Origin: Ceratorhiza oryzae-sativae
Taxonomy: Eukaryota; Basidiomycota; Agaricomycetes; Cantharellales; Ceratobasidiaceae
Assembly (NCBI GenBank): GCA_030998015.1
Contig: JARWMV010000238.1
Coordinates: 1,612,001-1,676,000, forward strand
Length of the DNA: 64,000 nt
Reading direction: 5' to 3'
Shown here in pieces: positions 6,167 through 37,743 of the stretch. Numbering within the stretch: the stretch's first letter is position 1; every line of letters starts with the position of its first letter. The notes beneath the pieces were generated by a model. The model saw only the letters and a list, made by a program, of their open reading frames with translations. It was not told the origin of the DNA and searched no databases. The translations under genes and the position numbers were made by a program.

Positions 6167-6291
6167 TGTTATGACCTGTCAAACAGACATAACAGAATAA
6201 CAGAATATTTTATGGATTTATGGCATTTTTTCCTTAGCAGAACAAGCCATAAACAAGGTCACATGACCTGGGTGCTTAACTGGCGCTTATG

Positions 6292-6630
6292 GTGGTTACC
6301 CTGAACTCGCTCCAGCATTTCTCTCCCTTGTTACTTGGAGCGAGGAGCGAGTTGTCACATGATCTCAGCGCTTACAGCAGGATCATGTGACCTCAGCACC
6401 TACAGTGGTTACCCTGAACTTGCTCCAGCATTTCTCTCCCTTGTTACTTGGAGCGAGGAGCAAGTTGTCATGTGATCTCAGCACTTACAGCAGGATCACG
6501 TGACCTCAGTGCTTATGGTGGTTACCCTGAACTTGCTCCAGCATTTCTCTTCATTGTTACTTGCAGCAAGGAACAAGTTGTCACATGATCTCGGCGCTTA
6601 CAGCAGGATCATGTGACCTCAGCATTCACC
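6292..6630 (+). repeat. 113-bp tandem repeat in the LTR, three copies
   Basis: The marker 'gtggttaccctgaact' recurs at 6292, 6405 and 6518, an exact 113-bp period. Each unit includes 'gctccagcatttctct' and 'cagcaggatca'. In the 3' LTR the marker occurs only twice (23009 and 23122), so the two LTRs differ in copy number. Confidence 0.85.
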
Positions 6631-6774
6631 CCTCGGACCTTGTGCAGCTCTATAAGATTTGGAGCCACACAAACTTAAGACAAACAATTACCTAACCCAT
6701 AGTACTGTACATAACCTGCACCTACTGCAGATTGTGCTTAGATAATACATCTGCAGCCACTGCAGCCACAGGCA

Positions 6775-6820
6775 TATATAAGAAGGATAAAGCAAGACTG
6801 GACACCTCAGCTTGCTTTAT
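6775..6820 (+). promoter_or_regulatory. Element A promoter: TATA box and predicted transcript start with self-priming segment
   Basis: TATATAAG lies at 6775-6782. About 35 bp downstream, 'gcttgctttat' (6810-6820) is the exact complement of the primer-binding site at 6951-6961. An upstream 'ataaagcaag' (6787-6796) can also pair with it as a hairpin. The start site is inferred from the TATA distance, not observed. Confidence 0.6.
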
Positions 6821-6950
6821 CTTGTCAACCACCATAGACCATAGCAAACACTGTAACTAGAACACTCAATACATACCACATAGCACCAAACTGTCAACAC
6901 AGCCACTACTTAAGTGCTTTGCAAGGAAGCATCCAGAGGGTCACAACATT

Positions 6951-7068: not shown

Positions 7069-8904
7069 ATGTCACAGAGACCACAAACTCGATCTCAAAG
7101 CAGAGTGGCAAATAGTAGACCACAATCACCCAAACCTGTTGCTTCCCCAGAGGCTGAAGGTAACCCAGATGAGACCCTCCAAGGAATGCCAGGGGGGTTG
7201 CCACAAAACCCACAACCAGTGGCTCAACCTAACCCCACTTGGGCCCCCATCCTGGGAGGGCAAATAGGGGGAATACTGCTCTGCAGCCCTCAACCACCAA
7301 TTCACCTGATAAATCCAGACCCAGAAGATATCTCAAATACAGAGAGGGATGAGGTAGAAGATATGACCCAAACCATATATGAACAAGGCATGGCCTTGGC
7401 AGAAGAGGCAAGGACACAACCCCAGCCAGGTCCTGGAACCATAGCCACTGCCAACCCTATTCACATCATTGCCACCACCATCAGGGTGGGGCTCAAGGAA
7501 CTTAGAGACAATAACCATAGGGAACTAGAAAAGGCAATCACAGGTATAAATCAGTGTCAAATATCACTAATCTGACAAGAAGGAAATGTGGACTGGATGG
7601 TAAGGTCAATGGAAACATCCAACAAAAATGTCCTCTATGTGGCAAAGAACCAGGACGACCTAAAAGCAGAAATGGGGAACCTGATAAAAGAATTAAAGGA
7701 CATCTCCATGGAAATAAACCAGGTACTGGGAATGCAAGAGCAAAAGCTCGAAAGCTTAGAGAAGAAAACTGAAAACACAGGGGAGATCCTAATCGCACTA
7801 GAACAATGGGTAACCGATCTAGGAAATGAGCTCCAGAAAACAACTGAAGCAGGAAGGCCAAGGGAAAGGACAGAAGAGACCAGGGGAAGAACTAGGGTGG
7901 TCATAGGAAGCCCCTCATGATCCCCCTCAGCCTCCCCAGTACAAACACCCTTTCTGGGAAGAACCTTCCAGGCTGAGTCCACAATAAGACCCTGAACAGA
8001 ACCTCCATCCCAAGCAAACCAACCTACCCTTGCCACAAACCACACTCCTAAGGAGGCGCGACTAGGGAGACCCAGCAAATTTAATGGGAAAAAAGGGAAG
8101 GAAGCAGAGAACTTCATAATCAGCATGGAACTTTTCTTTGCTGACTATGACAAATCAGCCTTTGACAACTGAAAAAAGATATCTGCTGTGTTAATGAACA
8201 TGGAGGATGGGGAAGCAGCAAACTGGGCACAACCTTACTGCTGGAAACTACTAGCAGGCGAACGCACAGGTATCCTTGCATCCTGGAAGGATTTCAGGAA
8301 GGGATTCCTGGATGCTTTTAACAACCCAGTCATAAAGGAAAAGACCATCTGGAAACTAAGGAAATTAACACAAACCAAGAGTGCATTGGATTATGTTACC
8401 CAATTCCGGATCCTGATCCAAGAGGTAGACTGGAACCAGGAAGCCCTCAAGGACCAATTCAGGGAAGGGTTAAAACCTGAAGTACAACAAGAGATCTTAA
8501 GGATTGAAGTACTGGCAAATGAGGCTGAAGGTCCATCATATACCTTAGATCAATTAATCGACTTTGCCTGCAAAATGGATGACATGCAGTTTGCAAACCA
8601 GAAAATGAATGCAAGGACCAGCAACTCATCAAATTCAACCTGGGCACCAGCAAAATATAAACAAGGGGGGAACAAGCCTTCAGGGACCAGTGGCAAACAG
8701 GGGAATACCCAAACCAACAACATGGTAAGGATACCAAACAGTGAAAAGGACAGGTGAAGGAAAGAAGGACTCTGTATCAAATGCAGTAAATCAGGGCATG
8801 TCCTGAAGGACTGCTGAGGCCAGTGGACCTACAACAAAGCTAAGATACAAGGGAAGGCCAGCAGACAAGTTGAGGAAGAAAGCAGCTCTGAGTTGGAAAA
8901 CTAA
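7069..8904 (+). pseudogene. Element A gag (capsid/nucleocapsid), six in-frame TGA
   Basis: One frame runs from the ATG at 7069 to TAA at 8902-8904 (611 codons), broken only by TGA at 7573, 7918, 7993, 8170, 8755 and 8815. The N-terminus is Pro/Gln-rich, a coiled-coil-like stretch follows at about residues 175-260, and the capsid core includes 'WKDFRKGFLDAF' and 'LDYVTQFRILI'. A CCHC zinc knuckle 'CIKCSKSGHVLKDC' (C-x2-C-x4-H-x4-C) sits near the end, followed directly by one of the TGA codons. Gag packages the RNA in the virus-like particle. It is not functional as it stands unless TGA is read through. Confidence 0.85.
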
Positions 8905-9033: not shown

Positions 9034-10834
9034 ATGCTGATTGACTCAGGATCTTCAACCAACTTCATTGATAAGGCCTATTCAAGGGAAAAGGGGATTC
9101 TGACCACTCCCCTCAAACACAAGAAATCAATTGTGGCCATTGATGGAAATGAAATCAAGGATGCCATAGAAGAAAGGGCAGAACTAAATATTGAAGTGGA
9201 AGGGAAGACACTGAAATGCTCCCTTTATGTGATGACCCTAGGCAACACAGACATAGTCCTAGGGAAAGAATGGCTTGAAGAAGCAGAACCTATCATAGAT
9301 TGGAAAGACCTTACCATCTCATACCCAGATGAAATCAAGGCAAGGGCAGCAAGTGAAAGCCTACAAATCCCAGAAGAATTTAGGGATTTTGAAGACCTGT
9401 TTGGGGAAGAAGGTTTCCAAGAACTTCCACCCCACCAAGGTAACCTGGACTTCAAAATGGACCTGATCAAGGGAGCAGAGCTGCCAAAGCCTGCAAAGAG
9501 GTACAGTATGTCACCAGCAGAAACAAAGGCGCTCAGGGAGTACCTAGAGGAGGAACTAAGAAACAGGAAAATAAGGCCCAGCCAGTCAGTTGTAGCTGCA
9601 CCCTGTTTCTATGTGAACAAAGCAGATGGAGGGCTTAGGTTGGTAGTCGACTACTGTAAGATGAATGACATCACCAAGCCAGACAGGTTTCCACTTCCAA
9701 TCCAAATAGAATTGATTGAGAGACTGAAGGATGCAACCATCTATTCAAAAATGGATGTTTGATGGGGGTTCAACAACATCAGGGTAAAAGAGGGAGACAA
9801 ATGGAAAACAGCTTTCAGGACAGGAGAAGGCCAGTTTGAATGCTTGGTCATGCCATTCGGAGTAAAAGAAGGACCAAGAACCTTTACAAGGTTCATGATG
9901 GAAAAGTTCCATGACATAATAGATGATTATGTGGTAATCTACATGGACGATGTACTAGTGTTTTCCAGAAACAGGGAAGAACATGTACAACATGTCAGGG
10001 AAGTGTTAAGAAGAATGAGGGAAAACCACCTCTTCCTCAAACCACACAAGTGTCAGTTCTTTGTGAAGGAGGTAAGCTTCATTGGAATTGTCATATCCCC
10101 AGAAGGGATATCGATGGAAAAGGAAAAAGTAAAGGCAGTTCTAGAATGGCCAGAACCTAACACAGTAAAAGAAGTCCAAGCATTCCTAGGCTTTGTGGGG
10201 TTCTATAGAAGGTGGATAGAGAAGTTTAGCACCTTAGCCAAACCCCTCACAGATCTCATTCAAAAAGATGTCAAATTCCTGTGGGAAAGAAAACAGGAAG
10301 CATTTGAAGCTATCAAAGAAGCAGTAGCAAGAGAACTGGTCTTAATCCACCCAAACCCAAACAAGCCATACATACTGGAAACAGACACCTCAGGAGTGGC
10401 CATGGGGGCAGTACTAAGCCAAAAGGGTGATGACAACTGATTGCATCCAATTGCCTTCCTATCGAAGAGCTTCACCCCACCAGAGAAAAATTATGACACC
10501 TACGACAAGGAGTTGCTTGCAATTGTTAGGTCCTTAGAGCACTGGAGGTTATACCTAGAAGGGACAGAGGAACCTATTGTGATATACACCAACCATAGGA
10601 ACCTCCAGTACTGGCAAAATGCCCAGATGTGGAATAGAAGGCATGCCAGATGGTATCTCACTCTGGCACCCTTCAATTTTCAGATTGTGTATAGACCAGG
10701 GAAACTCTCACAGAAGCCAGATGCCCTTTCCAGAAGGAGTGACCATGGGGATACCCCTATGGAACCACAGATCATGATTCCAGAAGAAAGGTTCATAGGT
10801 TTCAAGGCAGAAGTACAGGGGAATTTCTGGGAGG
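9034..10834 (+). pseudogene. Element A pol, first part: protease, reverse transcriptase, RNase H
   Basis: The aspartic protease signature is 'LIDSGSSTNFID' near 9034. The reverse transcriptase follows, with 'YVVIYMDDVLVFS' (catalytic YMDD), then a tether 'FLGFVGFYRRWI' and RNase H beginning 'ILETDTSG' with '[17 protein letters not shown]'. TGA at 9760 and 10438 interrupts the frame at positions where relatives have arginine. The frame is the same as gag's, but a frame disturbance just upstream of 9034 blurs the gag-pol joint. Element B then splits the gene after codon 10831-10833; the reading continues in phase at 17748. Confidence 0.88.
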
Positions 10835-11209
10835 TGTCACAAACTGACATGCATATATCCACTCTATAATATTTTCTTGATTTACTACATTTTATGAGAC
10901 CAGCTTCAAACATACTTGCCTTTTATGGTATATCTGTGTCATGTGATTCAGGGGATGTTCCAGACTGATAACTGAGATGTATTTCAACTCTGATGTGAAA
11001 TTCTGCAGTTCTGCAGTTGCTTCTACTGCTTCTATCTCTTATCAGTTGTGACTCACTGTATGGACTTGTTTGTTATGATGTGGCTTGTACTATGTATATA
11101 AACCAGGTCAAGTTCACAGAGGACTCCTCAAGAACTTGACCTCTTGTCAAATACAAGTTCTTTTCTTTTCTTACTATTTTCCTCGTTGCCTGACTTGTTG
11201 TTGTCAACA
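10835..11209 (+). repeat. 5' LTR of element B (375 bp)
   Basis: Same length as the 3' LTR and differs from it at 13 places by my base-by-base comparison, 12 of which are TG/CA, TG/CG or CA/CG alternatives. It contains the TATA box and the self-priming segment. Confidence 0.95.
11095..11142 (+). promoter_or_regulatory. Element B promoter: TATATAAA and transcript 5' end with self-priming segment
   Basis: TATATAAA at 11095-11102 is followed 33 bp later by 'tcaagaacttgacct' (11128-11142), the exact complement of the primer-binding site. This is where a TATA-directed transcript should start. The start site is inferred. Confidence 0.7.
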
Positions 11210-11211
11210 TC

Positions 11212-11226
11212 AGGTCAAGTTCTTGA
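11212..11226 (+). other. Element B primer-binding site (self-priming type)
   Basis: 'aggtcaagttcttga', starting three bases after the LTR end, is perfectly complementary over 15 bases to 11128-11142 at the predicted RNA 5' end. In Tf1/sushi retrotransposons the RNA folds back so that its own 5' end primes minus-strand synthesis; this arrangement fits that mechanism. Confidence 0.72.
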
Positions 11227-11465
11227 CAATTGTAAGTCTCAGTGTCATCTGGGATACATCTGGAACGCTGTTGGCGTTGTCTCAAGATAACCCCCCGTTG
11301 CCTTCCACAATCCCACTCCACCTATCCACAGCCACAAGACATCATTGCCCTATATGTGCCTCTGTGAAACCTTGCATAGCCAGGTCCCTCACACGTTGTA
11401 ACAAGCTTTGGTTCTCTAATCTCTTCTGTTGACAAGAGGTGGGGTCACTCATTGCCCTTAAGTAG

Positions 11466-11897
11466 TTGAGCAATGGAGGTCACCTTCCTATTCCAATAGA
11501 CTTGGGAAAGGGTCTATTTTTCTCTTTTATCTTGCTCTTGCTCGAGTACATCTCTGACAGAACGCACGGCCCTCAAGTGGCACAACCTTTTACAGAAGAT
11601 CAGCACTGCCGTCTGTGTGGGTGGTTCGGACACCTGTCTATCCACTGCTTTACCCTCAACTCAGTTGAAAGTATCCTTGAAGAAACTGGGCACATCGATT
11701 TTAACTGAGTAGTAATTGTCAAAGTCCGCCCCCAGAAAGTCGGACGTGCCCAACAAGCATTTGTCACTGAACCAGGTGCCCCTGAGTGCAAAATCTGCCT
11801 TCAGGCGAACAGAGCCACTTTCCCAGCACGCTGCCCTTATTGTCCTAAGAAGGACAAATTCCTCTACTACTACACCATCCCCCGCAACCAGCTATAA
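11466..11897 (+). pseudogene. Element B 5' ORF with CCHC zinc knuckle
   Basis: An open frame upstream of gag encodes a perfect retroviral-type knuckle 'CRLCGWFGHLSIHC' (C-x2-C-x4-H-x4-C) and later a second Cys cluster 'CKIC ... CPYC'. The only internal stop is TGA at 11706; the frame ends at TAA 11895-11897. The start is unclear: a strong donor-like GTAAGT near 11231 and an acceptor-like 'ctgacag' near 11560 could mean that a spliced leader feeds it. The function is not known; nucleic-acid binding is inferred from the knuckle. Confidence 0.5.
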
Positions 11898-12252
11898 GCT
11901 GGAGAACCTCAGTCAACAACTTCTTCATCACCTGTTAAACACTATTGAAAATTTCCAAGACAGGTATCGTCATTACCAGAATAAGTACGAAGAAACCTGT
12001 GAAAAACTCCATGAAGCCAAGGCCTGTTGCATGTACCTAACTGAGCATTTGCATGAACACCAGGAGGACTATCTATCCCTCCAAGAAACCATCGAACCCC
12101 ACGAGTACGCCTTCCCCATCTTCTCAACCCTGTCAGACCTTCCTCACACCACCTTTCTAAGTGGCACAAGCTTGCCAATTCAGGAAGAAGCACCCCTTCT
12201 GGCAGCCCAAGTTGATCCTCCCCAAGGAAACACTCCTTCAGGATCAAACTAA
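11890..12252 (+). CDS. Element B, helical segment before gag (frame +1 relative to the 5' ORF)
   Basis: From about 11890 to the stop at 12250-12252 a different frame is open and looks coding. It includes 'KLENLSQQLLHHLL' and a charged, coiled-coil-like stretch, 'YRHYQNKYEETCEKLHEAKA'. It may be the second half of the 5' ORF product reached by a frameshift, or a relic. The same frame is open back to 11716, but that part overlaps the knuckle ORF and is probably its shadow. Confidence 0.4.
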   Translation, partial: SYKLENLSQQLLHHLLNTIENFQDRYRHYQNKYEETCEKLHEAKACCMYLTEHLHEHQEDYLSLQETIEPHEYAFPIFSTLSDLPHTTFLSGTSLPIQEEAPLLAAQVDPPQGNTPSGSN

Positions 12253-12462
12253 ACTAAAAAGGGTGGAGTGCCCATATCGTTGTCAAGACACCAAAAGTTG
12301 GGACCTGGACGATACGTGGCTAAGGTTCGAAGGAGTTGGAAATTTTGAAATCTATAGACTTGTGTGGGGAACTGAAATCTTTTATTATCAAAACAACTCT
12401 CAATTTCCTGTACTTCCATACCGTCTCTGTCACCTTTAAAATCTACTCGATTTCCTTCTGAA

Positions 12463-13854
12463 ATGGCGTCACCAACCCCTGCCCCTGCTTGGGCAAATAT
12501 GTCTGACGGAGATAAGGTCATCTATATGCTTCAATCAATGGACGAACTGCGAGAGCAAACCAACAATCTCCAAAACGATATTGGAGACATCGAACACAAT
12601 AATAAAACCTACACGGACTCACTCGAGGCCAAACTTACCACCAATCAGACAAAAATAGATGCAGATGTGGCTGGACTAGCCACCAATGTCAACAATCTAG
12701 TAGGGATGTTAGCCATTCTCCAAACCACTATCACGTGCATTGAAGTGCAAATCAACACTTCCATGGGTGGCTCAGGTGCTGCCCAAGTACTAGCTCCCTC
12801 CAGTGCAGCCCAACCACAACCAACAGCACCTGCTCCCTCTAGTGGGTCAACTGCAAAGGTTAAGATGGCCGCCCCTCAAAAGTTTGATGGCACAAAACAA
12901 GAAGACGCCATCTCATTCAGAATTGCATGTGCCCGATACATTAATACAAACATGAGTGGGCGTTCGGCTGATCAAGTGGTCGCCTTCATCACCTCTTATC
13001 TTGAAGGGTCCACAGCTGAATGGGTCAACTCCTATGAGGAGTTTGAAATCTTAAACCCTGGAACTGGAATCCCATGGCTTCATGATGCCAACCTGTTTTG
13101 GCAGGAATTCACCACCCAATATGGGGACTTGAACCACACTGAAAATAACCATGACAAATGGCGGAAACTGAAACAATCCAAGACGGTCCAAGACTACCTC
13201 ACTCTGTTCAACCTATACTCAACTGGGCTCAACTACAACAATGCAGCCATGTGTGATCAGTTCTATGATGGGTTGTTGTCTGATGTAACAGACAGCATGG
13301 TAGCCCAAAATTATGATCCCTGCACAAAGACATTCGCGCAGCTCACACAGTGGGCCCTGGAAATCAACCACCACCTCATTTCTTTCAGAAGCAAGAGGAC
13401 ATCTCATGGGGGTAACAAGTCCAGCAGCAACAATGCCTTGACCAGTAGGCTGACAAATAACCCCCAAAGCACCCCCCAAAAAGAGAAATTCAAGAATGGG
13501 GAACGAGTATACAAGATTAAGGACGGCAGGGCTGTAACAGGTCAAATTGTAGCCATTGGGCCCAACACAAAGGGCTTCACGGTCCCAACTGTCTGCTACG
13601 ATGGCAGCAATGCCAACGTACAAGAATCCTTCAAGGACATAAAGAAGGATAACCATCCACTGGTGGTCCCAAAGGCGAAGGATCCAGACGCAATGGATCT
13701 GGATAGCACAGGAAAAGGGAAGGGGACAAACACCTGCTATAACTGTGGAGGGCGCAGCCACATTGCCGCCAAATGCCCCTCAGCCAAGATGTCAGGATAT
13801 GAGGCAGTGGTTGAGGACATGGAAACAACCAACAATGAGTCGGTAAAAGAATGA
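12463..13854 (+). CDS. Element B gag, intact, 463 aa
   Basis: Uninterrupted frame from ATG 12463. The N-terminal third is a coiled coil (heptad-like from residue 20 to 90), then an Ala/Pro/Ser linker, then a capsid domain starting near 'PQKFDGTKQEDAISF' with 'TAEWVNSYEEF' and 'QDYLTLFNLYS'. A small basic segment with 'GERVYKIKDGRAVTGQIVAI' resembles an SH3-like fold by eye and precedes a CCHC knuckle 'CYNCGGRSHIAAKC' near residue 430. The stop TGA at 13852-13854 overlaps the ATG of pol (ATGA), suggesting coupled reinitiation. It assembles the particle and binds RNA. Confidence 0.9.
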   Translation: MASPTPAPAWANMSDGDKVIYMLQSMDELREQTNNLQNDIGDIEHNNKTYTDSLEAKLTTNQTKIDADVAGLATNVNNLVGMLAILQTTITCIEVQINTSMGGSGAAQVLAPSSAAQPQPTAPAPSSGSTAKVKMAAPQKFDGTKQEDAISFRIACARYINTNMSGRSADQVVAFITSYLEGSTAEWVNSYEEFEILNPGTGIPWLHDANLFWQEFTTQYGDLNHTENNHDKWRKLKQSKTVQDYLTLFNLYSTGLNYNNAAMCDQFYDGLLSDVTDSMVAQNYDPCTKTFAQLTQWALEINHHLISFRSKRTSHGGNKSSSNNALTSRLTNNPQSTPQKEKFKNGERVYKIKDGRAVTGQIVAIGPNTKGFTVPTVCYDGSNANVQESFKDIKKDNHPLVVPKAKDPDAMDLDSTGKGKGTNTCYNCGGRSHIAAKCPSAKMSGYEAVVEDMETTNNESVKE

Positions 13855-16800
13855 GCTCAAACTGTGCCCAGGGGGCAGTCTTGGGTGCTATGTTACAAAA
13901 TGCACATAATGAAAATAAAAATATGGAAATGGAATGTATGTCGTTAGGAAACCAATCACAACTACAGTTTTTCTTTCATGCATTCCCTCTGCGCATAACC
14001 CCCGAACACAAGTCTGCATATAACATGAAAAAATTCAACGGATGGGCCATGATTGACTCAGGGGCCATGTCAGTATTTATACATGAAGATTTGGTTAAAC
14101 AATACTGTATTCCTACTGTTGCCCTAAAAACACCCAAGAAACTGAGGGTAATTGATGGAACGGAGATAGACTCTGGGTCCATGACCCATTACTGCACCTT
14201 TGAGTTGTGCATTCAAGAGCACTGAGAGATCCTCAGTGCTTACGTTGTGAATGTTGGCAAAAATGACCTAGTCCTGGGCATGTTGTGGCTCAAATTCCAT
14301 AACCCAGACATTGATTGGGATGGAAAGGATATGAAGTTCAACTCGCCAATATGCTTGAAGCACTGCATTACAAAACCCCTACATGTGCAAGCAAATGAAC
14401 CCAAGGAGCTTCAGTTGGACTCCTTAGACTCCCTCCCAGCAAAATATAGAGAATTCTGGAAAATATTTGCTGAAGAAGATGATGTCCAACCACTGCCACC
14501 CCATAGAAAGTGGGATATGGAGATAGATCTGAAACCAGATGCAAAACCAAGGCATGGCCCCATATACAGTGTGGGTGTCAAAGAAGACGCAGAATTGTGC
14601 AAAACCTTAGACCGCCAATTGAAGGCAGGGCATATTAGACCCTCAAGGTCACCAATGGCATCCCCAGTCATATTTGTTAAAAAGAAGAATGGGAAGCTGT
14701 GCATGTGCATCGACTACCAGTGGCTAAATGAAATGACTGTCTCCAATGTGTACCTGCTCCCATGCATCAATGATATTGTGGAAACTTTACGTGGGGCAAA
14801 GATATTCACCAAGTTTGACCTAAAGTGGGGTTTCAACCTCATACGAATTCGGGAAGGAGACAAATGGAAGGCTGCTTTTAAGACCAAATACAGGCTGTAC
14901 GAGCCCTTAGTCATGCAATTTGGCCAAAAGAATGCACCAGGAACCTTCATGGCCATGATCCGAGAAGAATTCCAGGACATCGAAGGCATTTATGTTGTAA
15001 TTTACATGGACGACATATTAGTATTCTCAAAAAACCAAGAGGAACATGATGAACATGTCAGAGAAGTCTTGTGTCGGCTCCAAAAGGCTGGCCTATACTG
15101 TGCCCTGGAGAAATGTGTTTTCAATGTCACTGAAGTGGACTACCTGGGAATAGTAGTGACTCCCCAGGGAATTAAAGTAGACCCAGCCAAGGTCGAAAAA
15201 GCTGTTGAATGGCCAACCCCTACTAACCCAACCAAAGTCCTGGAAGGGCTGGGGTTTGCAAATTGGTTAAGGCACTTCATAAAGGACTTTTCAAAAATCA
15301 CAAAATGTCTTTATGAACTTGTCAAGAAGGATGTAAAGTGGGAATGGACAGAAGAAAGGGATTGGGCATGGAACCTGCTGAAGCAGAAATTAAAGGAGTC
15401 CCCCCTCCTAATTCAGCCAGAACCCAGCAAACCATTCATTTTGGAAACAGACACCTCAGGCTATGCCACAGGCGCTGTATTATTGCAATATGGAGAAGAC
15501 AGAATGCTCCACCCAATTTCCTACTACTCGAAGGCAATGGTCCCGGCAGAAAGAAATTATGATATTTACAACAAAGAAATGCTGGCAATCATAAAGGCCC
15601 TCAAACACTGGCGTCACTTACTAGAAGGGGCTGAACACCCAGTAAACATTGTTTGTGACCACAAGAATTTGGAGTATTGGAAGACGAATCGGCCACTGAA
15701 CGGCTGAGTCACATGGTGGCATGAGTTCCTATCCAGGTTCGAATTCAAGATTCTATACATTGAAGGGGCAAAGAATGGCCAGGCAGACATACTCTCTAGG
15801 CTGTCAAGACACATCCCTAAAGAGGGGGGTGAGAGCCAAGCTCTGCTTGCGCAAAACCAATTTTTTGAGCTGAAATCACTGTGCCTGCAAGCAATCACGC
15901 CAGACCATGACCTGGAACAACTCATTAGGGATGCTATCCCAGGGGACGAACACCTATCAAAAGTGCTAAAAGCCCTAGATGACAATGAGAAGGTCAAAGA
16001 TTGGGAATGGGACGAAGGACTTTTACAACACAAGGGCAGAATCTATGTCCTGAATAACAAAGAACTTTGCAAACTGGTCATCGAAAGCTGTCATGATAGC
16101 CCAGCAGCAGGACACCCAGGACAGTTCAGAACATATGAATTGCTAAATCACAAATACACGTGGTTATCAATGAAAAAATCAGTCAACGAATACGTCACAC
16201 ATTGCAAGTCATGCATCAGGAACAAGCACAGCAACCAAGTTCCCCCAGGGCTCCTAAACCCAATACCCACACCAGAAAAACCTTGGGAGGAAATTACCTA
16301 TGATCTGGTCACCAGGCTACCCCTGTCAGAGGGGTTTGACACCATATTTACAGTTGTCAACCGCCTGACAAAAATGGCCCACTTTATTCCATGTCAATCG
16401 GAAGCCAGTGCTATGGATTGCACCAACTTGTTCCTAACATATGTATGGAAACTTCATGGGTTACCATGGAAAACAATCTCAGACCGCGGCCCCAACTTTG
16501 CATCCAAATTCTTAAGGCACCTATACAAATGGCTGGATATAAAACCCTCCTACTCCACAGCATACCACCCTCAGACAGATGGCCAGTCTGAACAGGCCAA
16601 CCAAGTAGTGGAAGGGTACATCAGACATTATGTATCAGACCGGCAAGACGACTGGGTCTCGCTCCTACCATTGGCTGAATTTGCCTACAATAATGGTGTC
16701 AATGCCTCGACTGGCAAATCACCATTCTTTGCAAACTACAGTTTCCACCCAAGGCTAGCAGTTGGGGACAGGGAGGAACAAGAACTCCCCTTAGCAGACA

Positions 16801-17357
16801 ACCATGCAGAATGGCTCCAAAAGGGCCATGACGAACTTAAGGCAGCTCTGGAAATAGCAAACCATAGGATCAAGGAATACTATGACCAGAAGCATCGGAC
16901 CCCAGAAGCTATTAAGGTTGGAGACAAAGTCTGGCTTGATACCAAGAACATACAGACACAGCAGGCCTCCAGGAAATTGGCCCACAAAAGAGTTGGACCA
17001 TTCAAGGTGGTAGCACAACATGGCACACATGCTTACAAACTGGACCTACCGATAACCATGAAAATACACCCAGTGTTTCATGTTTCACTCCTCACCAAAT
17101 ATAAAGACAACCCCTATGGCCGTCAGGTTCCCCCACCACCACCTGTGGTAACTCCTGAAGGGGAAGAAGAATTCAAAGTGGAACAGATCATAAAGTCACA
17201 ATACAACAAAAGGTCTAACATCTTCAAACACTACGTCAAGTGGCTCGGCTATGACGAGCAACAATGGTTAACTTATGATGACCTGGTGAATGCACCAGAA
17301 CTCATTGCCGGCTATGTCAAGTCACACCCAAAGGCACCCCACGACCCCCTGCCTTGA
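13851..17357 (+). pseudogene. Element B pol: protease-RT-RNase H-integrase-chromodomain, two TGA
   Basis: One frame of 1168 codons from the ATG overlapping the gag stop to TGA 17355-17357, broken only by TGA at 14223 and 15705. Order: protease 'MIDSGAMSVFIH'; reverse transcriptase with 'VVIYMDDILVFSK'; RNase H from 'ILETDTSGYATGAVL'; integrase zinc domain ('ESCHDSPAAGHPG', then 'THCKSC'); catalytic core with 'ISDRGPNF' and 'YHPQTDGQSEQANQVVEG'; and a C-terminal chromodomain 'FKVEQIIKSQYNKR...HYVKWLGYDEQQWLTYDDL'. All catalytic residues are present. The chromodomain directs integration to chromatin marks in relatives. Only the two TGA codons keep it from being open throughout. Confidence 0.93.
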
Positions 17358-17367
17358 AGGGGGGAAG
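17356..17367 (+). other. Element B polypurine tract
   Basis: 'gaaggggggaag' ends directly at the 3' LTR (17368), where plus-strand priming occurs in LTR retrotransposons. The pol stop codon overlaps its first bases. Confidence 0.85.
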
Positions 17368-17742
17368 TGTCACAAACTGACACACATATATCTACTCTAT
17401 AATATTTTCTCGATTTACTACATTTTATGAGACCAGCTTCAAACATACTTGCCTTTTATGGTATATCTGTGTCATGTGATTCAGGGGATGTTCCAGACCA
17501 ATAACCGAGATGTATTTCAACTCTGATGTGAAATTCTGCAGTTCCACAGTCGCTTCTACTGCTTCTATCTCTTATCAGTCATGACTCACTGTACAGACTT
17601 GTTTGTTATGATGTGGCTTGTACTATGTATATAAACCAGGTCAAGTTTGCAGAGGACTCCTCAAGAACTTGACCTCTTGTTGAATACAAGTTCTTTTCTT
17701 TTCTTACTATTTTCCTCGTTGCCTGACTTGTCGTTGTCGACA
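17368..17742 (+). repeat. 3' LTR of element B (375 bp)
   Basis: Aligns without gaps to 10835-11209. It retains more CG dinucleotides than the 5' copy at several of the sites where they differ. Confidence 0.95.
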
Positions 17743-17747
17743 GGAGG

Positions 17748-19228
17748 AGCTTAAAGAAGCTCAGGAAGAAGACAAATCTATCAGATCCTTAAGGCTGAGC
17801 ATGGCAAATAAAGAACAACTACCACCCTCAGTACAGAAGGAATTTAGATGGTATGAAATGAAGGAGGGCCTATTAAGGTATGACAATAGGCTCTACATCC
17901 CAGATGACAAGGACTTGAGGTTGAGTCTCCTTGAGGAGTGCCATGATGCCCCTGTGGTGGGTCATCAGGGACAAGCCCAAACACTAGAATTACTATCAAG
18001 GGATTACTACTGGCCAGGAATGAAGGCCCAAGTAAACTGATATGTGGAATCTTGTGAAACGTGTCAAAGAAGCAAAGGACACAAACAAGGCACTCCCCTG
18101 AAGCCCTTACCAATCCCATGGAAACCATGGGCAGATGTTGCATATGATTTCATCGTCAAATTACCTGTCTCAAAGGGGTATGACAGCATCTTGACAGTTG
18201 TAGATCGCTTCTCCCAGCAGGCCCATTTTGTACCATGTCTGGAGAGCACCAATGCAGAAGAACTGGCAGAAATATTCATAAGGGAGGTATGGAGACATCA
18301 TGGGACCCCAGAAACCACTGTCTCAGACCAAGGGCCAACCTTTAACAGCCGATTCCTAAAAGCCCTATACAAGGGAATTGGGACAAAGCCCAGATTCTCC
18401 ACTGCCTTCCATCCAGAAACAGATGGACTGTCGGAAAGAACAAATCAATGGGTAGAAGGGTTCTTAAGAACCTTCTGCAATTATAGACAAGATGATTGGG
18501 TAAAATGGTTACCCATTGCCAAATTCTGCCATAACAACCATGTAAATGCTACAACAGGACAAACCCCATTTGAAATGGTATATGGAAAAAACCCAAGATG
18601 GGTTGTCTGAGAGGGAGAAGAACTGTCTGAGGCACCCACTGCAGACAACATGTGTAATCAAATGGAAAAAGTATGGGATGAGGCAAGAGCCTCAATGGAA
18701 TTACACCAACAAATGGAAAAGAAAGGGAGGGAATTCAAGGTAGGAGACAAGGTTTGGCTGCTCCTAACAAACCTCTTGTCCAAGAGACCCTCCAAGAAAT
18801 TGGACAACCAAAAAGGGGGCCCTTTTGAAATCACAGAAAAGATCTCATCCCATGCATATCACCTGGACCTACCTAAAACCATATGTGTACACCATGTATT
18901 CCATGTAAATCTCCTCTCACCATTCACAGAAGATAAAGACTTCCAAAGAAGGCAGGCCAAACCACCACCAATCATAACAGAAGAAGGAGAGGAGGAGTAT
19001 GAGGTGGACCACATTGCAAATTATGAATGGTGGAATGGCGAGCTGTTTTACCAAATCAGATGGAAGGGCTACGACCCAATAGAAGACACAATGGAACGTG
19101 CCAGCAAGTTTGCTGACATGAAAGAGGTTCTAAATGACTTGCAAAGGTGCTTACCAGATGCACCAATGCCAGTCAAGACAAGTCAGCACTCAGGTGACTT
19201 GAAAGGCAGGCCAAAGAGAACCAAATGA
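17748..19228 (+). pseudogene. Element A pol, second part: integrase and chromodomain
   Basis: Continues the element A pol frame once element B and one GGAGG copy are disregarded. The zinc-binding module is 'ECHDAPVVGHQG' then 'ESCETCQRSKG'; the catalytic core has 'VSDQGPTF' and 'FHPETDGLSERTNQWVEG'; a GPF/Y-like 'KGGPFEI' and a chromodomain 'YEVDHIANYEWWNG...YQIRWKGYDPIEDTMERAS' follow. TGA at 18038 and 18608 interrupts it at family arginine positions ('VN[stop]YVESC'). It ends TGA 19226-19228, overlapping the ATG of the next ORF. Confidence 0.88.
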
Positions 19229-20154
19229 GGATCTGGAAAGCTTTAAAAAGAGCCATTCAGGATACCCAAGAAAGGCCAGAGCCCACTCTACCACCTCACT
19301 TGCACCACAATACACCTGCGAAACCCCAAAACATGCCTTTCATCACTCACCCAGTCGCACATCCCAACCATTACACACCACTTGCTGAAAATCAGGTGGC
19401 CCCACTTTGGCAGCCACCCACCACTAGGCGGCCAGCACCCTACCCTGGCAGGGAAAATTGTCCTAAACCAGGGATGTACTGCTCCAGTGTGGAAGACACC
19501 CAGAGGTACACTGAGCGACTGTCGCCAGGGGCTAACCTAGTGTACATCCCAAAGAAGTTAAGGGATGAAAGGAACTGGATTGACAATGACAAGTACCTGG
19601 ATCCCAGGTTAGGGGTCCTGACATGGCATGGAAGCCAGAAGCCAACAACAAGAAACGCCTTGCTAAGAACACCGATGTATGTCATTGACAATATTGTGGG
19701 ACCAACAGTCAACATGGTGGCCAAGGCAGCAAGACAACAGAGGAGGGCTGCAGGCCAAATGGCAGATGGGGGGGACTGGGAGGTGGAGCGCCAGGCCAAG
19801 GCATTGTTGGAAGAATGGAAGTTGACACCGGCCACACTGTATGTGGGACTGCTCAAAGCAACTACCACTGATGAGATGTTTACTGCTATCAGGACAAAGC
19901 AGGCAAACATGAGCGACTTCTGAAATTGGGTGAAGGTGCACCCAAACAAAAACACCAATTACAACACTGATATGACAAGCCTTACATCAAGCCTAGAATC
20001 ACTGGTCATGGCTGAGGAAGAAGCCAAGCCAGTGATAAAAGAACCCACCCTAGACCCAGCTGCGGAGGAAGCCAAACAGGACTGGGACCAGTGGGAAAAC
20101 GAGCTTGTTGAAGCTCTGGAGGAGGTGCCACTGTTGGAACCAGCCCCCATATGA
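19225..20154 (+). pseudogene. Element A accessory ORF downstream of integrase, about 309 codons
   Basis: The ATG at 19225 overlaps the pol stop (ATGA), the same stop-start coupling as between gag and pol of element B. The frame has one in-frame TGA (19921-19923) and ends at TGA 20152-20154. The product is not recognised: a basic N-terminus ('RIWKALKRAIQ'), a Pro/His-rich region, a central part with 'GANLVYIPKKLRDERNWIDN' and 'VGPTVNMVAKAARQQRRA', and an acidic C-terminus ('EEEAKPVIKEPTLDPAAEEA'). Extra ORFs between integrase and the 3' LTR are rare in chromoviruses. It could serve the element, or it could belong to the same captured block as the Rep gene; neither is shown. Confidence 0.55.
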
Positions 20155-20236
20155 CCACTTTGCCTCCCATGGAATTTTCTCAAATGTATAAGAGTTTTAC
20201 TTTTTACACATCAAACTTAATACATTTTGTTACTCT

Positions 20237-20769
20237 CTATTTACGTTTGCCCTTGAGGGGCCAGGTATAGGGCTTCTTGCCTTTTTTATCCTTCTTATTG
20301 GTCTGAACAACTGACCAGGTAGTGGGCTGCAGCCAAGGGGCCTCCCCCCCTGGGAAGTCAGCCATGTAGTTCTGGAAACACCCAGAACCAGATGCTGCAA
20401 AGGGCGAAGCCTCATCAAACGAGGGAGCAGAGCCCTCCTTGAAGAATTCGGCAAGAGCAGCCTGGTGAGACTGCTCCTCAAAGGGCTTGTAGTCCTTATC
20501 AACAAGCACCCAGACACGCTCAAGGGTGGCCTCATGGGCCCAACCATTGAGGAGGATGTGCTCTTCTACAGAACAAGTTAGCAATGTGAGAACAACGAAG
20601 AACAAGCACACATACCTGGCACCCCACAGAAGAACCAATCCCTGACACCTCCATAGAAGTCTTCAAGGGAGGCGTCGCACATGGCATCGCAGTAGGCACA
20701 GTACTCCCCCTCAGGGAGAGACCAGCAGGTGCAGTCAAGGGGATTGTAGTTAAGGGAAATAACGCACAC
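20237..20769 (-). CDS. Spliced opposite-strand gene inside element A, function unknown
   Basis: On the minus strand a Cys-rich exon ('CTCWSLPEGEYCAYCDAMC') ends at a strong donor (GTATGT) near 20615. An acceptor 'ttctgtag' near 20570 leads to a second exon with 'FKEGSAPSFDEASPFAASG' and a very basic C-terminus 'KKDKKGKKPYTWPLKGKRK', ending at 20237. No clear ATG was found for exon 1, which may extend right of 20769. A spliced gene antisense to a retrotransposon cannot be copied through the retroelement RNA with its intron removed, so it was probably captured or acquired as DNA. CRESS viruses often have ambisense genes, so it may have come with the Rep gene; that is speculative. Confidence 0.45.
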
Positions 20770-20927
20770 AGTAAAGACAGGATGAGGAAGGAAAACAACA
20801 AAACCACAAACATTAAAAAATCACAGTGCAACACAATAACTTGCACAAACATCAAAACAAAGTCTGGTCAGGTGACACCAACAGACACATGACCATCTGC
20901 CAGAAAACAAACAACAAAGCATGGGAA

Positions 20928-20953
20928 TCACATGACCTAGCCTAGTCATGTGA
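20928..20953. other. Hairpin with 9-bp stem between the opposite-strand gene and Rep
   Basis: 'tcacatgac' and 'gtcatgtga' pair perfectly around an 8-base loop 'ctagccta'. Position and size resemble the origin hairpins of CRESS-DNA viruses, but the loop lacks a TAATATTAC-like nonanucleotide. Confidence 0.4.
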
Positions 20954-21204
20954 ATATACACTATCCCCTAACTACCAGAGGGGTTGGAGAGGGGGCACCG
21001 ACCAAAGTGGAGGAGCAGAGGCCCCAAGCATAGCAAGGAAAAAGGCCAACACAGGGGAATGCAGGAAGGGCACCCCTCGGAGATGTGTCATAACCAGCAC
21101 AAGCCTACATCAGGAAACCACATGATCACAACAACCAGAAAGGGTATATCTAGGGGACACCTTTGGGGGCAAAAGGGGCTATTGTTTCATGCCCTCCCCA
21201 CAAG

Positions 21205-22575
21205 ATGCATCTACCTCAAAAAACACCAACAATGCTAAGCGAAGATGGCTTGAATGTGGGAACACCCCAGCCAAACAAATCAAGCACAGGGTGGAGGTCG
21301 GCATTGCCATTGCTGGCACCCTTGGAATCAAGCTGAGCCCCCTCACCCGCTTCTACACAGCTTACGCTGACAGATTGCAGGTCCGAAGAGCCAACCGAAA
21401 CCACATGGGCCCCCCAATTCTGTGTCCAGACCAGGGCAGTGCTGCTGACCTGGTCGAAGCTACGTGATCAGCCCTCAAGTGGGCTTGCCACCCAATACAA
21501 GGTGTTCTGCCACCACCAGCCCAATCACTGGGCAACCTTAGCCATGGTCGAATGGCACAACCCAGAGGAGCTGAACTACAACCTGACCTGGCCCCTGCAT
21601 GTCCACGCCCTCTCCATCAGTCAGGAATGGAAGGGTGGGTGGAACACCCAGAACGTGGGGTTCTGGGACTTCAAGGGGCAACACCCCAACATACAGCCCA
21701 AAGACCTCAAGGACGGGCCAGGAGGCAACCCAGCAAGGGACGCCTTCAACTATCTCTGGAAGGATGTCAGAGCTAATGGCAAGGAGATAGAGGATTTGAT
21801 GGCAGGGGACCTGACCTTGGAAAGGTTGGAGGAGATCTTGGTGAAGGGAAAGGGTGGAAAACGGTCAAGGATGGAGGCAGACTTGGAGGATGGGATGGAG
21901 ATTGTCACCTCAGCGACGAAACAGGAGTACTACCAGGCATTCAAGCACCTCCGCCCCCTCCAGATGGTGACGACATGGAACTTGGTACAAGCATATGCCA
22001 AGTACACATACAAGGAAGACTGGGGTTGCATGCCTGCAATCCCTGTGGAGTTAGAGGTCCTGGAAGACTGGGAGCACATTGACTGAGCAGACAGATGGTT
22101 TGCCAAGGAGGTCGAGAAGAGGGGAAGAGGGGTGCGCCATTGCATCCTGGTGATAGAAGCCAAGGAGGTCGAGAAGAGGGGAAGAGGGGTGCACCATTGC
22201 ATCCTGGTGATAGAAGGAGAAACTGGAACAGGGAAAATGGCATATGCACGATCCAAGGGCTGCCACAGCTGGATGTGCAATGTGTGGAATGTGGGCAACT
22301 TGTCAGAAGATGCCAACATTTGGATCCTGGATGACATGGTCCAGTCAAACGGGAAGTACTTGCTCAAGGCCCTGAGCCAGTACGAGGCAGACTTCACAGG
22401 CAGGTACGTGCACATGAAATCGATGAAGGTACAGCTGACAGTTATTCTGGGAAATAGCCAGTCAGCAATCATGAAGTGTTGGTCAGACATAGAGGGGGAA
22501 GAAGGGGACTTATGGGTATCAAGAAATGTAGAATGGGTGTATGCAGGAGGAAAACCATTCTTTGTATTCCCTTAG
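21205..22575 (+). pseudogene. CRESS-DNA-virus/geminivirus-type Rep gene (HUH endonuclease + SF3 helicase) inside element A
   Basis: One frame from ATG 21205 to TAG 22573-22575 with in-frame TGA only at 21334 and 22084. HUH endonuclease signatures occur in order: motif I-like 'VLLTWSK' (about residue 79-85), motif II 'PLHVHALS' (130-137, His-x-His), a GRS-like 'FWDFKGQHPNIQ' (153-164) and motif III 'AFNYLWKD' with Tyr 183 and Lys 186. The SF3 helicase part has Walker A 'GETGTGK' (338-344), Walker B 'WILDDM' (373-378) and motif C 'VILGNSQ' (413-419). Rep nicks the viral origin and unwinds DNA in rolling-circle replication. A 57-bp in-frame duplication lies just before Walker A. The gene is on the retrotransposon's coding strand and upstream of its polypurine tract. 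Endogenous Rep genes are known in fungi; one inside an LTR element is new to me. Confidence 0.82.
22102..22215 (+). repeat. 57-bp tandem duplication in the Rep gene
   Basis: 22102-22158 and 22159-22215 are near-identical (one base differs, a CG versus CA), adding 19 codons in frame directly before the Walker A motif. Confidence 0.95.
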
Positions 22576-22692
22576 AATAATTTACTGTATTGTACAACTT
22601 CTGCTATGCCCATCCAAACAGTTGGGGCATTCTGAGAAGAAGCAAACGAATCCTCACCCCTAAATAACCTCCACAACAAAGAAAAGAAAAAC

Positions 22693-22821
22693 AATCTCAT
22701 GTAACAGAGAGGTTAAGGGGTCTAGCCTGACTCAGCCTGACCTCATCAAACAATACTGAATCAGCCGAAAGGTTGTTGGTTCAAGTCCAGTGCCCTTAAC
22801 CTCCTTGGTGCATGAGATTCC
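22693..22821 (+). ncRNA. tRNA-like hairpin with a box B sequence, upstream of the polypurine tract
   Basis: Two nested inverted repeats, 'aatctcatg'/'catgagatt' and 'gaggttaaggg'/'cccttaacctc', enclose a T-arm-like 'gttggttcaagtccagt' whose 'ggttcaagtcc' fits the pol III box B consensus. A box A candidate 'tgactcagcctg' has two mismatches and no proper D arm is evident. It may be a decayed tRNA or a tRNA-derived insertion. I cannot assign an anticodon. Confidence 0.35.
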
Positions 22822-22870
22822 TTTTGCATAAGGATCTAAACCATGTCTCAAGGTCCCCCAAGACATGTCC

Positions 22871-22882
22871 AAAGGGGGATAA
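22871..22882 (+). other. Element A polypurine tract
   Basis: 'aaagggggataa' lies directly before the 3' LTR start at 22883. This shows that the cargo genes upstream are internal to the retrotransposon and not beyond its end. Confidence 0.8.
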
Positions 22883-24252
22883 TGTTATGACCTGTCAAAC
22901 GGATATAACAGAGTAACCGAATATTTTTACAGATTTATGGCATTTTTTCCTAAGCAGAACAAGCCATAAACAAGGTCACATGACCTTGGCGCTTAACTGG
23001 CGCTTACAGTGGTTACCCTGAACTTGCTCCAGCATTTCTCTCCCTTGTTACTTGGAGCGAGGAGCAAGTTGTCATGTGATCTCAGCACTTACAGCAGGAT
23101 CACGTGACCTCAGCGCTTATGGTGGTTACCCTGAACTTGCTCCAGCATTTCTCTCCATTGTTACTTGGAGCAAGTAGGGCTCTGTGACAAACACAAATTT
23201 GAAAACATGTTTGACACAAACAATTATAAATGCTGTTTTCAAACAGTAACTCACCATTTGAAACCAGTCACTCTTGAAAGCTGCATGTGGCATGCAGCCA
23301 TTAGTCAGTGTCATGCCATTGTGGCAGAGACAACTGCATTCATACTTACATTTCACCACCGCCTATTCCCCAGCCTCTATTGACAGCAATGCCAGTACCA
23401 AGCAGTCAGGGCTCACCAAGCCAAGTGCCAATTGACCCCTGTCTCCTGGAACTTTTGCATCACCTTCATACTTTGCCAGCTTTAAACTTGAGAAGCATGA
23501 TATAGAGCACTATGGGTCAGCACAGAGTGCTCTGGATTATAAGCTTCAGCTTATCTTTGGTTCTCAAGTTGAAGGTTGTTCAATTGAATTCCAGGGTTGT
23601 GGGCAGTTGCTTGAAGCAATTGTACATACATTTTCAAAATACATAGACAGGGAGGAGGGCAAGAATAGGACTCTAGGGTGGTGGGTGAAAGAACTGGCAA
23701 TTGCAGCCAGTTCAATCTCACACTCATGTAATTCTTTAAAGATTTATCAAATGAATTACTGGTCATGGGCTATCATCATTGAAAACAGTTTCAAACTGTT
23801 TTTATGTGTTTGTCACAATGTGAGTTTTCAGTTTGAAATGTGAAAACTGTTTGTCACAGAGCCCTAGGAGTGAGGAGTGAGTTGTCACATGATCTCGGTG
23901 CTTATGGCAGGATCATGTGACCTCAGCACTTACCCCTTGGACCTCACACAGCTCTATAAGATTCGGAGCCACACAAACTTAAGATAAACAATTACCTAAC
24001 CCATAGTACTGTATATAACCTGCACCTACTGTGGATTGTGCTTAGATAATACATCTGCAGCCACCGCAGCCATGGGCGTATATAAGAAGGATAAAGCAAG
24101 ACTGGACACCTCAGCTTGCTTTATCTCATCAACCACCATAGACCATAGCAAACACTGTAACTAGAACACTCAATACATACCGCATAGCACCAAACCATCA
24201 ATGCAGCCACTACTTAAGTGCTTTGCAAGGAAGCATCCAGAGGGTCACAACA
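22883..24252 (+). repeat. 3' LTR of element A (1370 bp, contains a 688-bp MITE)
   Basis: Begins TGTTATGACC and ends GTCACAACA like the 5' LTR. Without the MITE and one TA it is 680 bp, about one 113-bp repeat unit shorter than the 5' copy. TATATAAG and the self-priming segment 'cagcttgctttat' are conserved near 24077-24123. Confidence 0.9.
23177..23864. mobile_element. MITE with TA target duplication, inserted in the 3' LTR of element A
   Basis: 688 bp with terminal inverted repeats starting 'gggctctgtgacaaaca' and flanked by TA at 23175-23176 and 23865-23866. Related 'gtttgtcac' and 'tttgaaa' motifs recur inside. The 5' LTR lacks it. TA duplication points to mobilisation by a Tc1/mariner-type transposase. 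No coding capacity. Confidence 0.85.
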
Positions 24253-37741: not shown

Positions 37742-37743
37742 TA

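What the first reader, a model, noticed from the sequence alone, without database searches (positions are those of the whole stretch)
19225..22882. LTR retrotransposon carrying a CRESS-DNA-virus Rep gene between integrase and polypurine tract
The sequence shows a full Rep-type order (motif I, His-x-His motif II, GRS-like segment, Tyr-x-x-Lys motif III, Walker A, Walker B, motif C) in one frame at 21205-22575. It sits inside the LTRs of element A and upstream of its polypurine tract, together with a sense accessory ORF and a spliced opposite-strand gene. Endogenous geminivirus/genomovirus-like Rep genes are established in fungal genomes, but I know of no chromovirus that carries one. It could be a captured ssDNA-virus genome hitch-hiking by retrotransposition, or a functional hybrid that can also replicate as circular DNA. 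The second option is speculation.
Basis: partly seen in the sequence, partly recalled or inferred. Interest (0 to 1): 0.92.

Follow-up and report, generated by a model that had tools for sequence, protein, structure and literature searches.

The report
Fungal retrotransposon carrying a Rep gene
A family of virus-like jumping genes in a fungus, which copies itself through RNA, also carries a gene resembling the DNA-replication starter of tiny circular DNA viruses, and that gene appears to have been kept working by selection much like the element's own copying enzyme.

Summary
Window 6167-24252 is a Ty3/chromovirus LTR element with another LTR element nested in pol. Between chromodomain and polypurine tract it carries ORF1, a spliced opposite-strand gene and a Rep-like gene with CRESS motif order (broken here by two stops and a 57-bp duplication). 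It is no one-off: a capped list gives 150 Rep matches in this genome, 124 with this chromodomain upstream at a fixed distance. Three Rep-bearing copies have LTR pairs and 5-bp target duplications outside the LTRs. Diverged subfamilies (about 70% identity) keep the order. Rep's dN/dS is 0.07-0.09 where measurable, like RT (0.46 in one young, CpG-decayed pair). Two subfamilies have an intron in Rep that a third lacks exactly. A related lineage has ORF1 but no detected Rep. So Rep is an old, selected part of the retrotransposon, not a passenger. Weak points: no significant profile or PDB match to any Rep, two failed structure models, no nonanucleotide origin; what Rep does is inferred. Nine paper searches listed no LTR retrotransposon with a CRESS-type Rep.

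The parts
6167..6948 (+). 5' LTR of element A (782 bp, TG...CA)
   Evidence: Repeat of 22883-24252
7069..8900 (+). gag region of element A, broken in this copy (upper end approximate)
   Evidence: Open pieces at 7069-7575 and 8194-8757; Retrotrans_gag and Ty3_capsid over cut-off in another copy, L032
9030..10834 (+). PR-RT-RNaseH part of pol, cut by nested element B (lower end approximate)
   Evidence: RVP_2, RVT_1, RT_RNaseH over cut-off in copy L031
10835..17743 (+). Nested second LTR element B (not part of A), flanked by GGAGG on both sides
   Evidence: LTR starts at 10835 and 17368; flanks GGAGG
17744..19228 (+). Integrase and chromodomain of element A
   Evidence: rve 29.8 bits (cut-off 32.6), SH3_Tf2-1 65.4 (over), Chromo 21.9 (cut-off 25.1) in this copy; Chromo 27.4 over cut-off in L034
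19225..20154 (+). ORF1, accessory sense ORF of unknown function (TGA at 19921 in this copy; 318-aa open frames in many copies)
   Evidence: distant homologue in family D
20240..20790 (-). Opposite-strand spliced gene; intron 20566-20615 (GT-AG); upper end approximate
   Evidence: 40% identity over 80 aligned codons to family C
20930..21108 (.). Conserved non-coding block between the two divergent genes (candidate two-way promoter or Rep site)
   Evidence: About 78% identity over 165-168 positions between the window and family C, where Rep synonymous sites are saturated or nearly so; no hairpin better than shuffles in three copies
21205..22575 (+). CRESS-type Rep gene (HUH endonuclease plus SF3-like helicase motifs), broken here by TGA at 21334 and 22084 and a 57-bp duplication
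   Evidence: 150 matches in a capped list
22869..22882 (+). Polypurine tract and junction to the 3' LTR
   Evidence: Sequence; similar junction in C87, C68 and C32
22883..24252 (+). 3' LTR of element A, with an inserted 690-bp element (23176-23865) bounded by 17-bp inverted ends

Best explanation
A Ty3/chromovirus lineage in a fungus acquired a CRESS-type Rep gene together with a divergently transcribed spliced gene, placed between an older accessory ORF and the polypurine tract, and has since multiplied with it by ordinary LTR retrotransposition. Shown: fixed position in many copies, LTR pairs and 5-bp target duplications around the whole unit in three copies, the same order in diverged subfamilies, purifying selection on Rep, an intron in Rep that one subfamily lacks exactly. 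Inferred: Rep is made from its own or a spliced mRNA, driven by the conserved block between the two genes, and acts as a nicking and unwinding enzyme on the element's own DNA (cDNA or LTR circles), giving more integration-competent DNA per reverse-transcription round. I give the selected-accessory-gene part about 0.85, the CRESS-type Rep identity about 0.85, and DNA-level amplification as Rep's job about 0.35.
For: Rep list of 150 scored (of 200 candidates): 126 have ORF1 and 124 the chromodomain on the same strand within 15 kb, median 2311 and 2970 bp upstream; of 150 chromodomain rows (of 787 candidates), 127 have Rep within 15 kb. 28 of 30 Rep loci, the window's own included, run on into the LTR. 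5-bp target duplications in 3 copies: C68, C87, C32. Rep A versus C: dN 0.16-0.21, dS about 3 or saturated, w 0.066-0.067 in the two comparisons where it can be computed; RT w 0.085; within A (L049 versus L031) dS 0.46, dN 0.04, w 0.093. A 61-bp GT-AG intron after the motif I exon in C and C2, absent at that point in A. Fungal host: 19 Fungal_trans matches, none in the 14 control genomes. Published motif strings agree closely: GRS RKFDVVGFHPNIISTI, Walker A GPSRTGKT or GPTRTGKT, Walker B VFDDI (PMC8621823, passages).
Against: No significant profile or PDB match to any Rep. A genome search with PF08283 gave three matches, all under cut-off and none at a listed Rep place; PF00799 gave none, nor did the control genomes ring. 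Structure models failed: mean pLDDT 38 and 33. Motif I is LLTWSK (LLTWS[MT] in C), not uuTYxQ. No nonanucleotide match inside the window copy; 6 in 173 kb of 43 Rep-related loci, none in the conserved block; no hairpin there. One A pair (L049-L046) gave w 0.46, probably CpG decay. The window copy and the C12/C237 copies show no target duplication, and C12/C237 share flanks, so they are one insertion copied. An open frame is no proof of an intact gene: L048 (426 aa) has a stretch in another frame.
Confidence: 0.75

Rival explanations
1. Rep is kept by selection but no longer replicates DNA: it works on the host, for example by countering silencing or cytosine methylation of the element, or by changing the cell cycle, as geminivirus Reps are reported to do (recalled, no call).
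For: No CRESS-type origin found. Copies differ strongly at CpG: the window copy has 20 CpG where the yardstick copy L049 has 70 in the same stretch; CpG-type transitions are 38 of 67 to 54 of 73 differences in the four closest of 18 comparisons and about a third in most distant ones, so methylation pressure on this family is plausible.
Against: The nicking and helicase residues are conserved together (YLWK in 43 of 43 Rep-holding loci, PLHVH or PLHIH in 42, VILGN or IILGN in 41; one copy counted twice, as L001 and window), which a purely host-directed role would not require.
Confidence: 0.3
2. Passive endogenous viral element: a CRESS genome fell into one retrotransposon and was carried along without function.
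For: Many single copies, the window's included, are broken.
Against: dN/dS about 0.07-0.09, same order in diverged subfamilies, 32 of 150 listed rows (my hand count) with an open frame of at least 426 aa and no stop in the match.
Confidence: 0.05
3. The Rep came from a fungal plasmid or a Rep-bearing DNA transposon (as reported in Tuber), not directly from a virus; the element is then a merger of two mobile elements.
For: Published Rep-plus-transposase element with terminal inverted repeats in Tuber melanosporum (PMC3198968, section 8). The present protein is too far from known viral Reps for a significant profile hit.
Against: No transposase match in the block; AS gene and ORF1 match no Pfam family.
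Confidence: 0.3
4. The motif resemblance is misleading: the protein is another P-loop protein with histidine and tyrosine motifs by chance.
For: No significant profile match; unrelated weak hits score better than or near Gemini_AL1_M (0.027): Suprabasin repeat E 0.0013 on the duplicated window piece, PRMT5_TIM 0.0062, nSTAND3 0.061, orc1/cdc6-type TIGR02928 0.02.
Against: Seven motifs in the right order and spacing; 0 of 2977 control frames and 0 of 20000 shuffles; Gemini_AL1_M, weak as it is, falls exactly between the two halves (residues 222-318, nearly the whole profile).
Confidence: 0.08

Closest known systems
Ty3/chromovirus LTR retrotransposons of fungi
   Same: LTRs, gag, PR-RT-RH-IN, chromodomain, polypurine tract, 5-bp target duplications
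   Different: ORF1, spliced antisense gene and Rep between integrase and polypurine tract
Genomoviridae/Geminiviridae Rep
   Same: Motif II, GRS-like FWDFxGxHPNI, YxxK, Walker A/B, motif C in order (published strings)
   Different: Motif I LLTWSK instead of uuTYxQ; no profile score over cut-off; no nonanucleotide origin found; no capsid found; multiplied by retrotransposition
Geminivirus-like transposon of Tuber melanosporum (PMC3198968; section 8 and passages read)
   Same: Multi-copy Rep gene in a fungal mobile element
   Different: That one has 37-bp terminal inverted repeats and transposase ORFs, and is not described with LTRs; its copies are over 95% alike
Terminons of bdelloid rotifers (PMC6431247; passages read)
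   Same: A retroelement associated with Rep proteins; the authors say this may point to circular intermediates
   Different: Giant telomeric elements without endonuclease, not LTR/Ty3
Bdelloid LTR retrotransposons with captured ORF3 (PMC5408684; abstract and outline seen)
   Same: Foreign gene as a third ORF beside gag and pol
   Different: Captured genes named there are env, GDSL esterase and DEDDy exonuclease; the whole word Rep occurs 0 times in that text
Nodavirus-like element captured by a retrotransposon in Bursaphelenchus (PMC5177903; search listing only)
   Same: Viral gene inside a retrotransposon
   Different: RNA-virus gene in a nematode

Membership tests
Ty3/Gypsy chromovirus | LTR pair and short target duplication around the whole unit | tested here: met
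   C68 TGATT, C87 CCAGT, C32 TGCTA. Not seen in the window copy (CTGTT against CTTAG) nor in C12/C237, one insertion copied
Ty3/Gypsy chromovirus | gag and PR-RT-RNaseH-IN order | tested here: met
   Ty3_capsid, RVP_2, RVT_1, RT_RNaseH, Integrase_H2C2 over cut-off in L031/L032; rve below cut-off (25.0 in L032, 28.6 in L034, against 32.6)
Ty3/Gypsy chromovirus | Chromodomain after integrase | tested here: met
   Over cut-off in L034 (27.4 against 25.1), below in the window copy (21.9) and L032 (24.2)
CRESS (geminivirus/genomovirus-type) Rep | Motif I uuTYxQ | tested here: not met
   LLTWSK in the window, LLTWS[MT] in family C; definition from PMC11052389 (passages)
CRESS (geminivirus/genomovirus-type) Rep | Motif II xHxHx and motif III YxxK | tested here: met
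   PLHVH or PLHIH in 42 of 43 Rep-holding loci; YLWK in 43 of 43 (six-frame search, one copy counted twice)
CRESS (geminivirus/genomovirus-type) Rep | GRS motif between II and III | tested here: met
   FWDF[EK]G[QN]HPN[IM] in 41 of 43, against FDVVGFHPNI in a genomovirus; first position differs (W for F)
[quoted passage not shown]
   Met in most copies; of 43, Walker A ends GKM in 13 (the window's own among them) and was not found in 2, Walker B has DN or NN in 10 and was not found in 3, motif C not found in 2; the family is decaying
CRESS (geminivirus/genomovirus-type) Rep | Significant profile similarity (Gemini_AL1, Gemini_AL1_M, SF3) | tested here: inconclusive
   Best Gemini_AL1_M E 0.027, 15 bits against 24, in 3 of 11 and 4 of 18 members; other unrelated families score as well
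CRESS (geminivirus/genomovirus-type) Rep | HUH and SF3 fold | tested here: inconclusive
   Models of mean pLDDT 38 and 33; not searched against fold libraries
CRESS DNA virus | Stem-loop origin with nonanucleotide | tested here: not met
   0 of 4 ANTATTAC matches of the window lie in 6167-24252; 6 in 43 other loci, none in the conserved block; no hairpin better than shuffles in the block of three copies
CRESS DNA virus | Capsid gene | tested here: inconclusive
   ORF1 and antisense gene match no Pfam family at E 0.01; only a chance-level hit (0.11) to ORF1
CRESS DNA virus | Circular ssDNA genome | not testable with these tools
   Needs reads or DNA from the organism
Geminivirus-like transposon of Tuber | Terminal inverted repeats and transposase ORFs | tested here: not met
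   The unit ends in LTRs with 5-bp duplications; no transposase match in the block

The most novel reading that the evidence does not exclude
A true two-way mobile element: it copies itself by reverse transcription and can also multiply as DNA by Rep-driven rolling-circle replication of its LTR circles, with the conserved block at 20930-21108 (or the LTR) as a new type of Rep origin. It would bridge retrotransposons and CRESS DNA replicons in one lineage.
Probability: 0.25. Interest if true: 0.95.

Novelty: new variant of a known kind. Interest (0 to 1): 0.8.

Why it matters
LTR retrotransposons are known to pick up genes after pol, often envelope-like ones. A DNA-replication initiator kept there by selection comparable to that on RT suggests that an RNA-copying element gains from a DNA-acting enzyme. 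It gives a concrete system to test whether retroelement DNA circles can be amplified as DNA, and a route by which Rep genes spread in eukaryotic genomes without virus infection. Surveys of endogenous Rep genes in fungi may be counting retrotransposon genes as viral insertions.

Tried and rejected
Homology: Pfam, PHROGs, NCBIfam and PDB sequence searches gave no significant Rep match. Family searches of the genome with PF08283 and PF00799 gave nothing over cut-off. Structure: single sequence and an 18-row alignment gave unusable models, so no fold search was made. Known Reps for a tree: two protein scans of the viral collection gave no relative; four DNA pattern scans (80 of 120 or more stretches fetched) gave no locus recognisable as CRESS: the 81 loci hold no GRS-type motif, the 12 were not analysed (all on contigs of 8 kb or more). 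Phage collection by tblastn: no match. Origin: no nonanucleotide in the window copy, none in the block of other copies, no hairpin. A tRNA-like stretch before the polypurine tract was not recognised by ARAGORN or Rfam. Host species: SSU rRNA search did not complete.

Considered and rejected: chance neighbourhood of unrelated repeats (fixed order and spacing); stand-alone Rep element (28 of 30 loci run into the LTR; of the 19 Rep rows without ORF1 or chromodomain nearby, 6 are among those loci and all 6 run into the LTR, the other 13 were not checked); nesting artefact of the window (other copies such as L031 have pol without element B inside it).

Dropped before counts: 10 of 150 ORF1 rows (second fragments of the same copies). 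The lists are capped at about 150 scored rows, so totals are lower bounds. In one search the motif I row is unusable (the expression matched other frames) and is not quoted; its 43 loci count the window copy twice.
Full report
What is in the window. Element A has LTRs at 6167-6948 and 22883-24252. A second LTR element (10835-17743, flanked by GGAGG on both sides) is nested in its pol. After the integrase and chromodomain (17744-19228) come ORF1 (19225-19923, continuing to 20154 after a TGA), a gene on the opposite strand with a 50-bp GT-AG intron (20240 upward; intron 20566-20615, my reading), a non-coding block (20930-21108), the Rep-like frame (21205-22575), a purine tract and the 3' LTR. 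The Rep frame of this copy has TGA at 21334 and 22084 and a 57-bp tandem duplication.

Is it Rep? Seven motifs stand in order: LLTWSK, LHVHA, FWDFKGQHPNI, YLWK, GETGTGK, WILDDM, VILGN. Published genomovirus strings are, for example, LFTYSQ, THLHA, RKFDVVGFHPNIISTI, YATK, GPSRTGKT, VFDDI, WLSN (PMC8621823, table row seen), and general forms are given in PMC11052389 (passages). Motif I departs from the rule (W for Y, K for Q). A regular expression of the order matched 0 of 2977 open frames from 81 viral contigs and 0 of 20000 shuffles, and two of three open copies tried; it had been relaxed to admit W. Profile searches were negative or weak: Gemini_AL1_M at E 0.027, 15 bits against a cut-off of 24, but placed between the two halves as expected, in 3 of 11 and 4 of 18 aligned members, while unrelated families such as PRMT5_TIM (0.0062) score better. 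Searching the whole genome with PF08283 gave three weak matches, none at a listed Rep place; PF00799 gave none. Two structure predictions failed; the first, of mean pLDDT 38, shows strands and helices in an order that would suit an HUH domain, which at that confidence is no evidence. I put the Rep identity at about 0.85.

Is it part of the retrotransposon? The window lies in a 48.8-Mb assembly with fungal transcription-factor domains (19 matches). A search with part of the Rep (the 180 residues of 21544-22083) scores 150 places of 200 candidates. On the same strand within 15 kb, 126 of 150 have ORF1 and 124 the chromodomain (124 and 122 of them upstream), median 2311 and 2970 bp (140 of 150 ORF1 rows used). 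In the other direction, 127 of 150 chromodomain rows have Rep. Of 30 Rep loci read with flanks, the window's own included, 28 continue into the LTR; L027 and L030 do not. Three other copies have LTR pairs and 5-bp duplications at the outer ends: C68 TGATT, C87 CCAGT, C32 TGCTA. The window copy has none (CTGTT against CTTAG), nor have C12 and C237, which share flanks and so are one insertion that was duplicated.

Subfamilies. L033-L036 (family C) and L042-L044 (C2) share roughly 65-75% of Rep residues with family A. L033, L034 and L035 have gag, pol, chromodomain, ORF1, antisense gene and Rep in the same order (L033 and L035 are one insertion). With element B as outside row, the integrase tree puts A, C, C2 and the rows L037 and L038 together with support 99/99, apart from L039-L041 (drawn at the midpoint, D itself not resolved; no Rep tree was made to compare). 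L039-L041 (D) have the integrase (50-57% identity) and a distant ORF1 (about 20-27%), but no Rep or antisense gene by tblastn, in the 3' pieces at E up to 1e-3 and in 3' and 5' pieces at E up to 1. L038 has ORF1, the antisense gene and part of the block, then breaks off; L037 is cut by another element. The simplest order of events is ORF1 first, then antisense gene plus Rep; loss in D is not excluded, the D copies are only three and damaged, and no LTR pair was found for them.

Selection. Between A and C, Rep shows pN 0.14-0.18 and pS 0.74-0.79 (dS about 3 or saturated); w is 0.066 and 0.067 in the two of five comparisons where it can be computed. RT gives 0.085; integrase has pN 0.17 with saturated dS. 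Gag, ORF1 and the antisense gene evolve faster (pN 0.32, 0.38, 0.44; antisense w 0.29 over 80 codons). Two open A copies (L049, L031) give dS 0.46, dN 0.04, w 0.093; another pair (L049, L046) gives w 0.46 at dS 0.10, and there 54 of 73 differences are CpG-type transitions, i.e. probably decay after insertion. The method is Nei-Gojobori; saturation makes the lowest values rough.

Intron. In C (L034, L035) and C2 (L043) the motif I exon is followed by 61 bp beginning GTAA and ending AG, after which the frame resumes; in A (L049, L031, window) the coding sequence runs straight across (L033 shows the same as L035). Exact loss is what reverse transcription of a spliced RNA would give; gain in C/C2 is not excluded. 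The antisense intron cannot be spliced from the sense RNA and is present in both families (frames, my reading of splice sites).

Block between the genes. Over 165-168 aligned positions it is about 78% identical between the window and L033-L035, while synonymous sites of Rep are saturated or nearly so. It holds no nonanucleotide and does not fold better than shuffles in three copies. It looks like a two-way promoter; a Rep site of a new type is possible.

Mechanism. Established knowledge: HUH Reps nick one strand at an origin and stay bound by tyrosine, and SF3 helicases unwind (recalled; also passages). Inference: the enzyme acts on the element's double-stranded cDNA or LTR circles and multiplies them; authors on Terminons also suggest circular intermediates where Reps accompany retroelements (PMC6431247, passage). 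Alternative: a host-directed role against silencing, plausible in a family whose copies differ so much at CpG. Neither is tested.

Literature. Nine full-text searches listed no LTR retrotransposon with a CRESS-type Rep. Several found more papers than they listed (109, 170 and 1244), most papers were seen as titles and first lines only, one search was aimed at motif definitions, and subscription journals are mostly not held. Nearest: the Tuber Rep element (PMC3198968, section 8 read), Terminons (PMC6431247, passages), bdelloid ORF3 (PMC5408684, abstract and outline).

Noticed in passing
window 33110-37744: Pair of 293-bp inverted repeats, 99% complementary, 4049 bp apart, with ORFs at 34100, 34650 and 36479: looks like a recent DNA transposon; the two ORFs tested (34100, 36479) match no Pfam family at E 0.001.
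   Followed up: partly
window 23176-23865: Insertion of 690 bp inside the 3' LTR, bounded by 17-bp inverted ends (AGGGCTCTGTGACAAAC), like a small non-autonomous DNA element (the repeat finder lists no arms of 20 bp or more).
   Followed up: partly
window 10835-17743: Nested LTR element B, LTRs 94% alike over 300 bp, GGAGG on both sides; inserted after A.
   Followed up: partly
window 22690-22830: tRNA-like stretch before the polypurine tract (GGTTAAGGG...GGTTCAAGTCC...CCCTTAACC, my reading), not recognised by ARAGORN.
   Followed up: partly
L043:2020-2378: The conserved block between antisense gene and Rep is present twice in tandem; several A copies have a second match to its first 19-24 bases just upstream.
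   Followed up: no
window 56622-57122 (- strand): Subtilase (Peptidase_S8) fragment, E 2.4e-13: probably a host gene.
   Followed up: no
Rep copies in the host genome: CpG content varies widely between copies (6 in L025, 20 of 70 in the window stretch, 89 in L049, 96 in L048), as under CpG methylation and deamination.
   Followed up: partly
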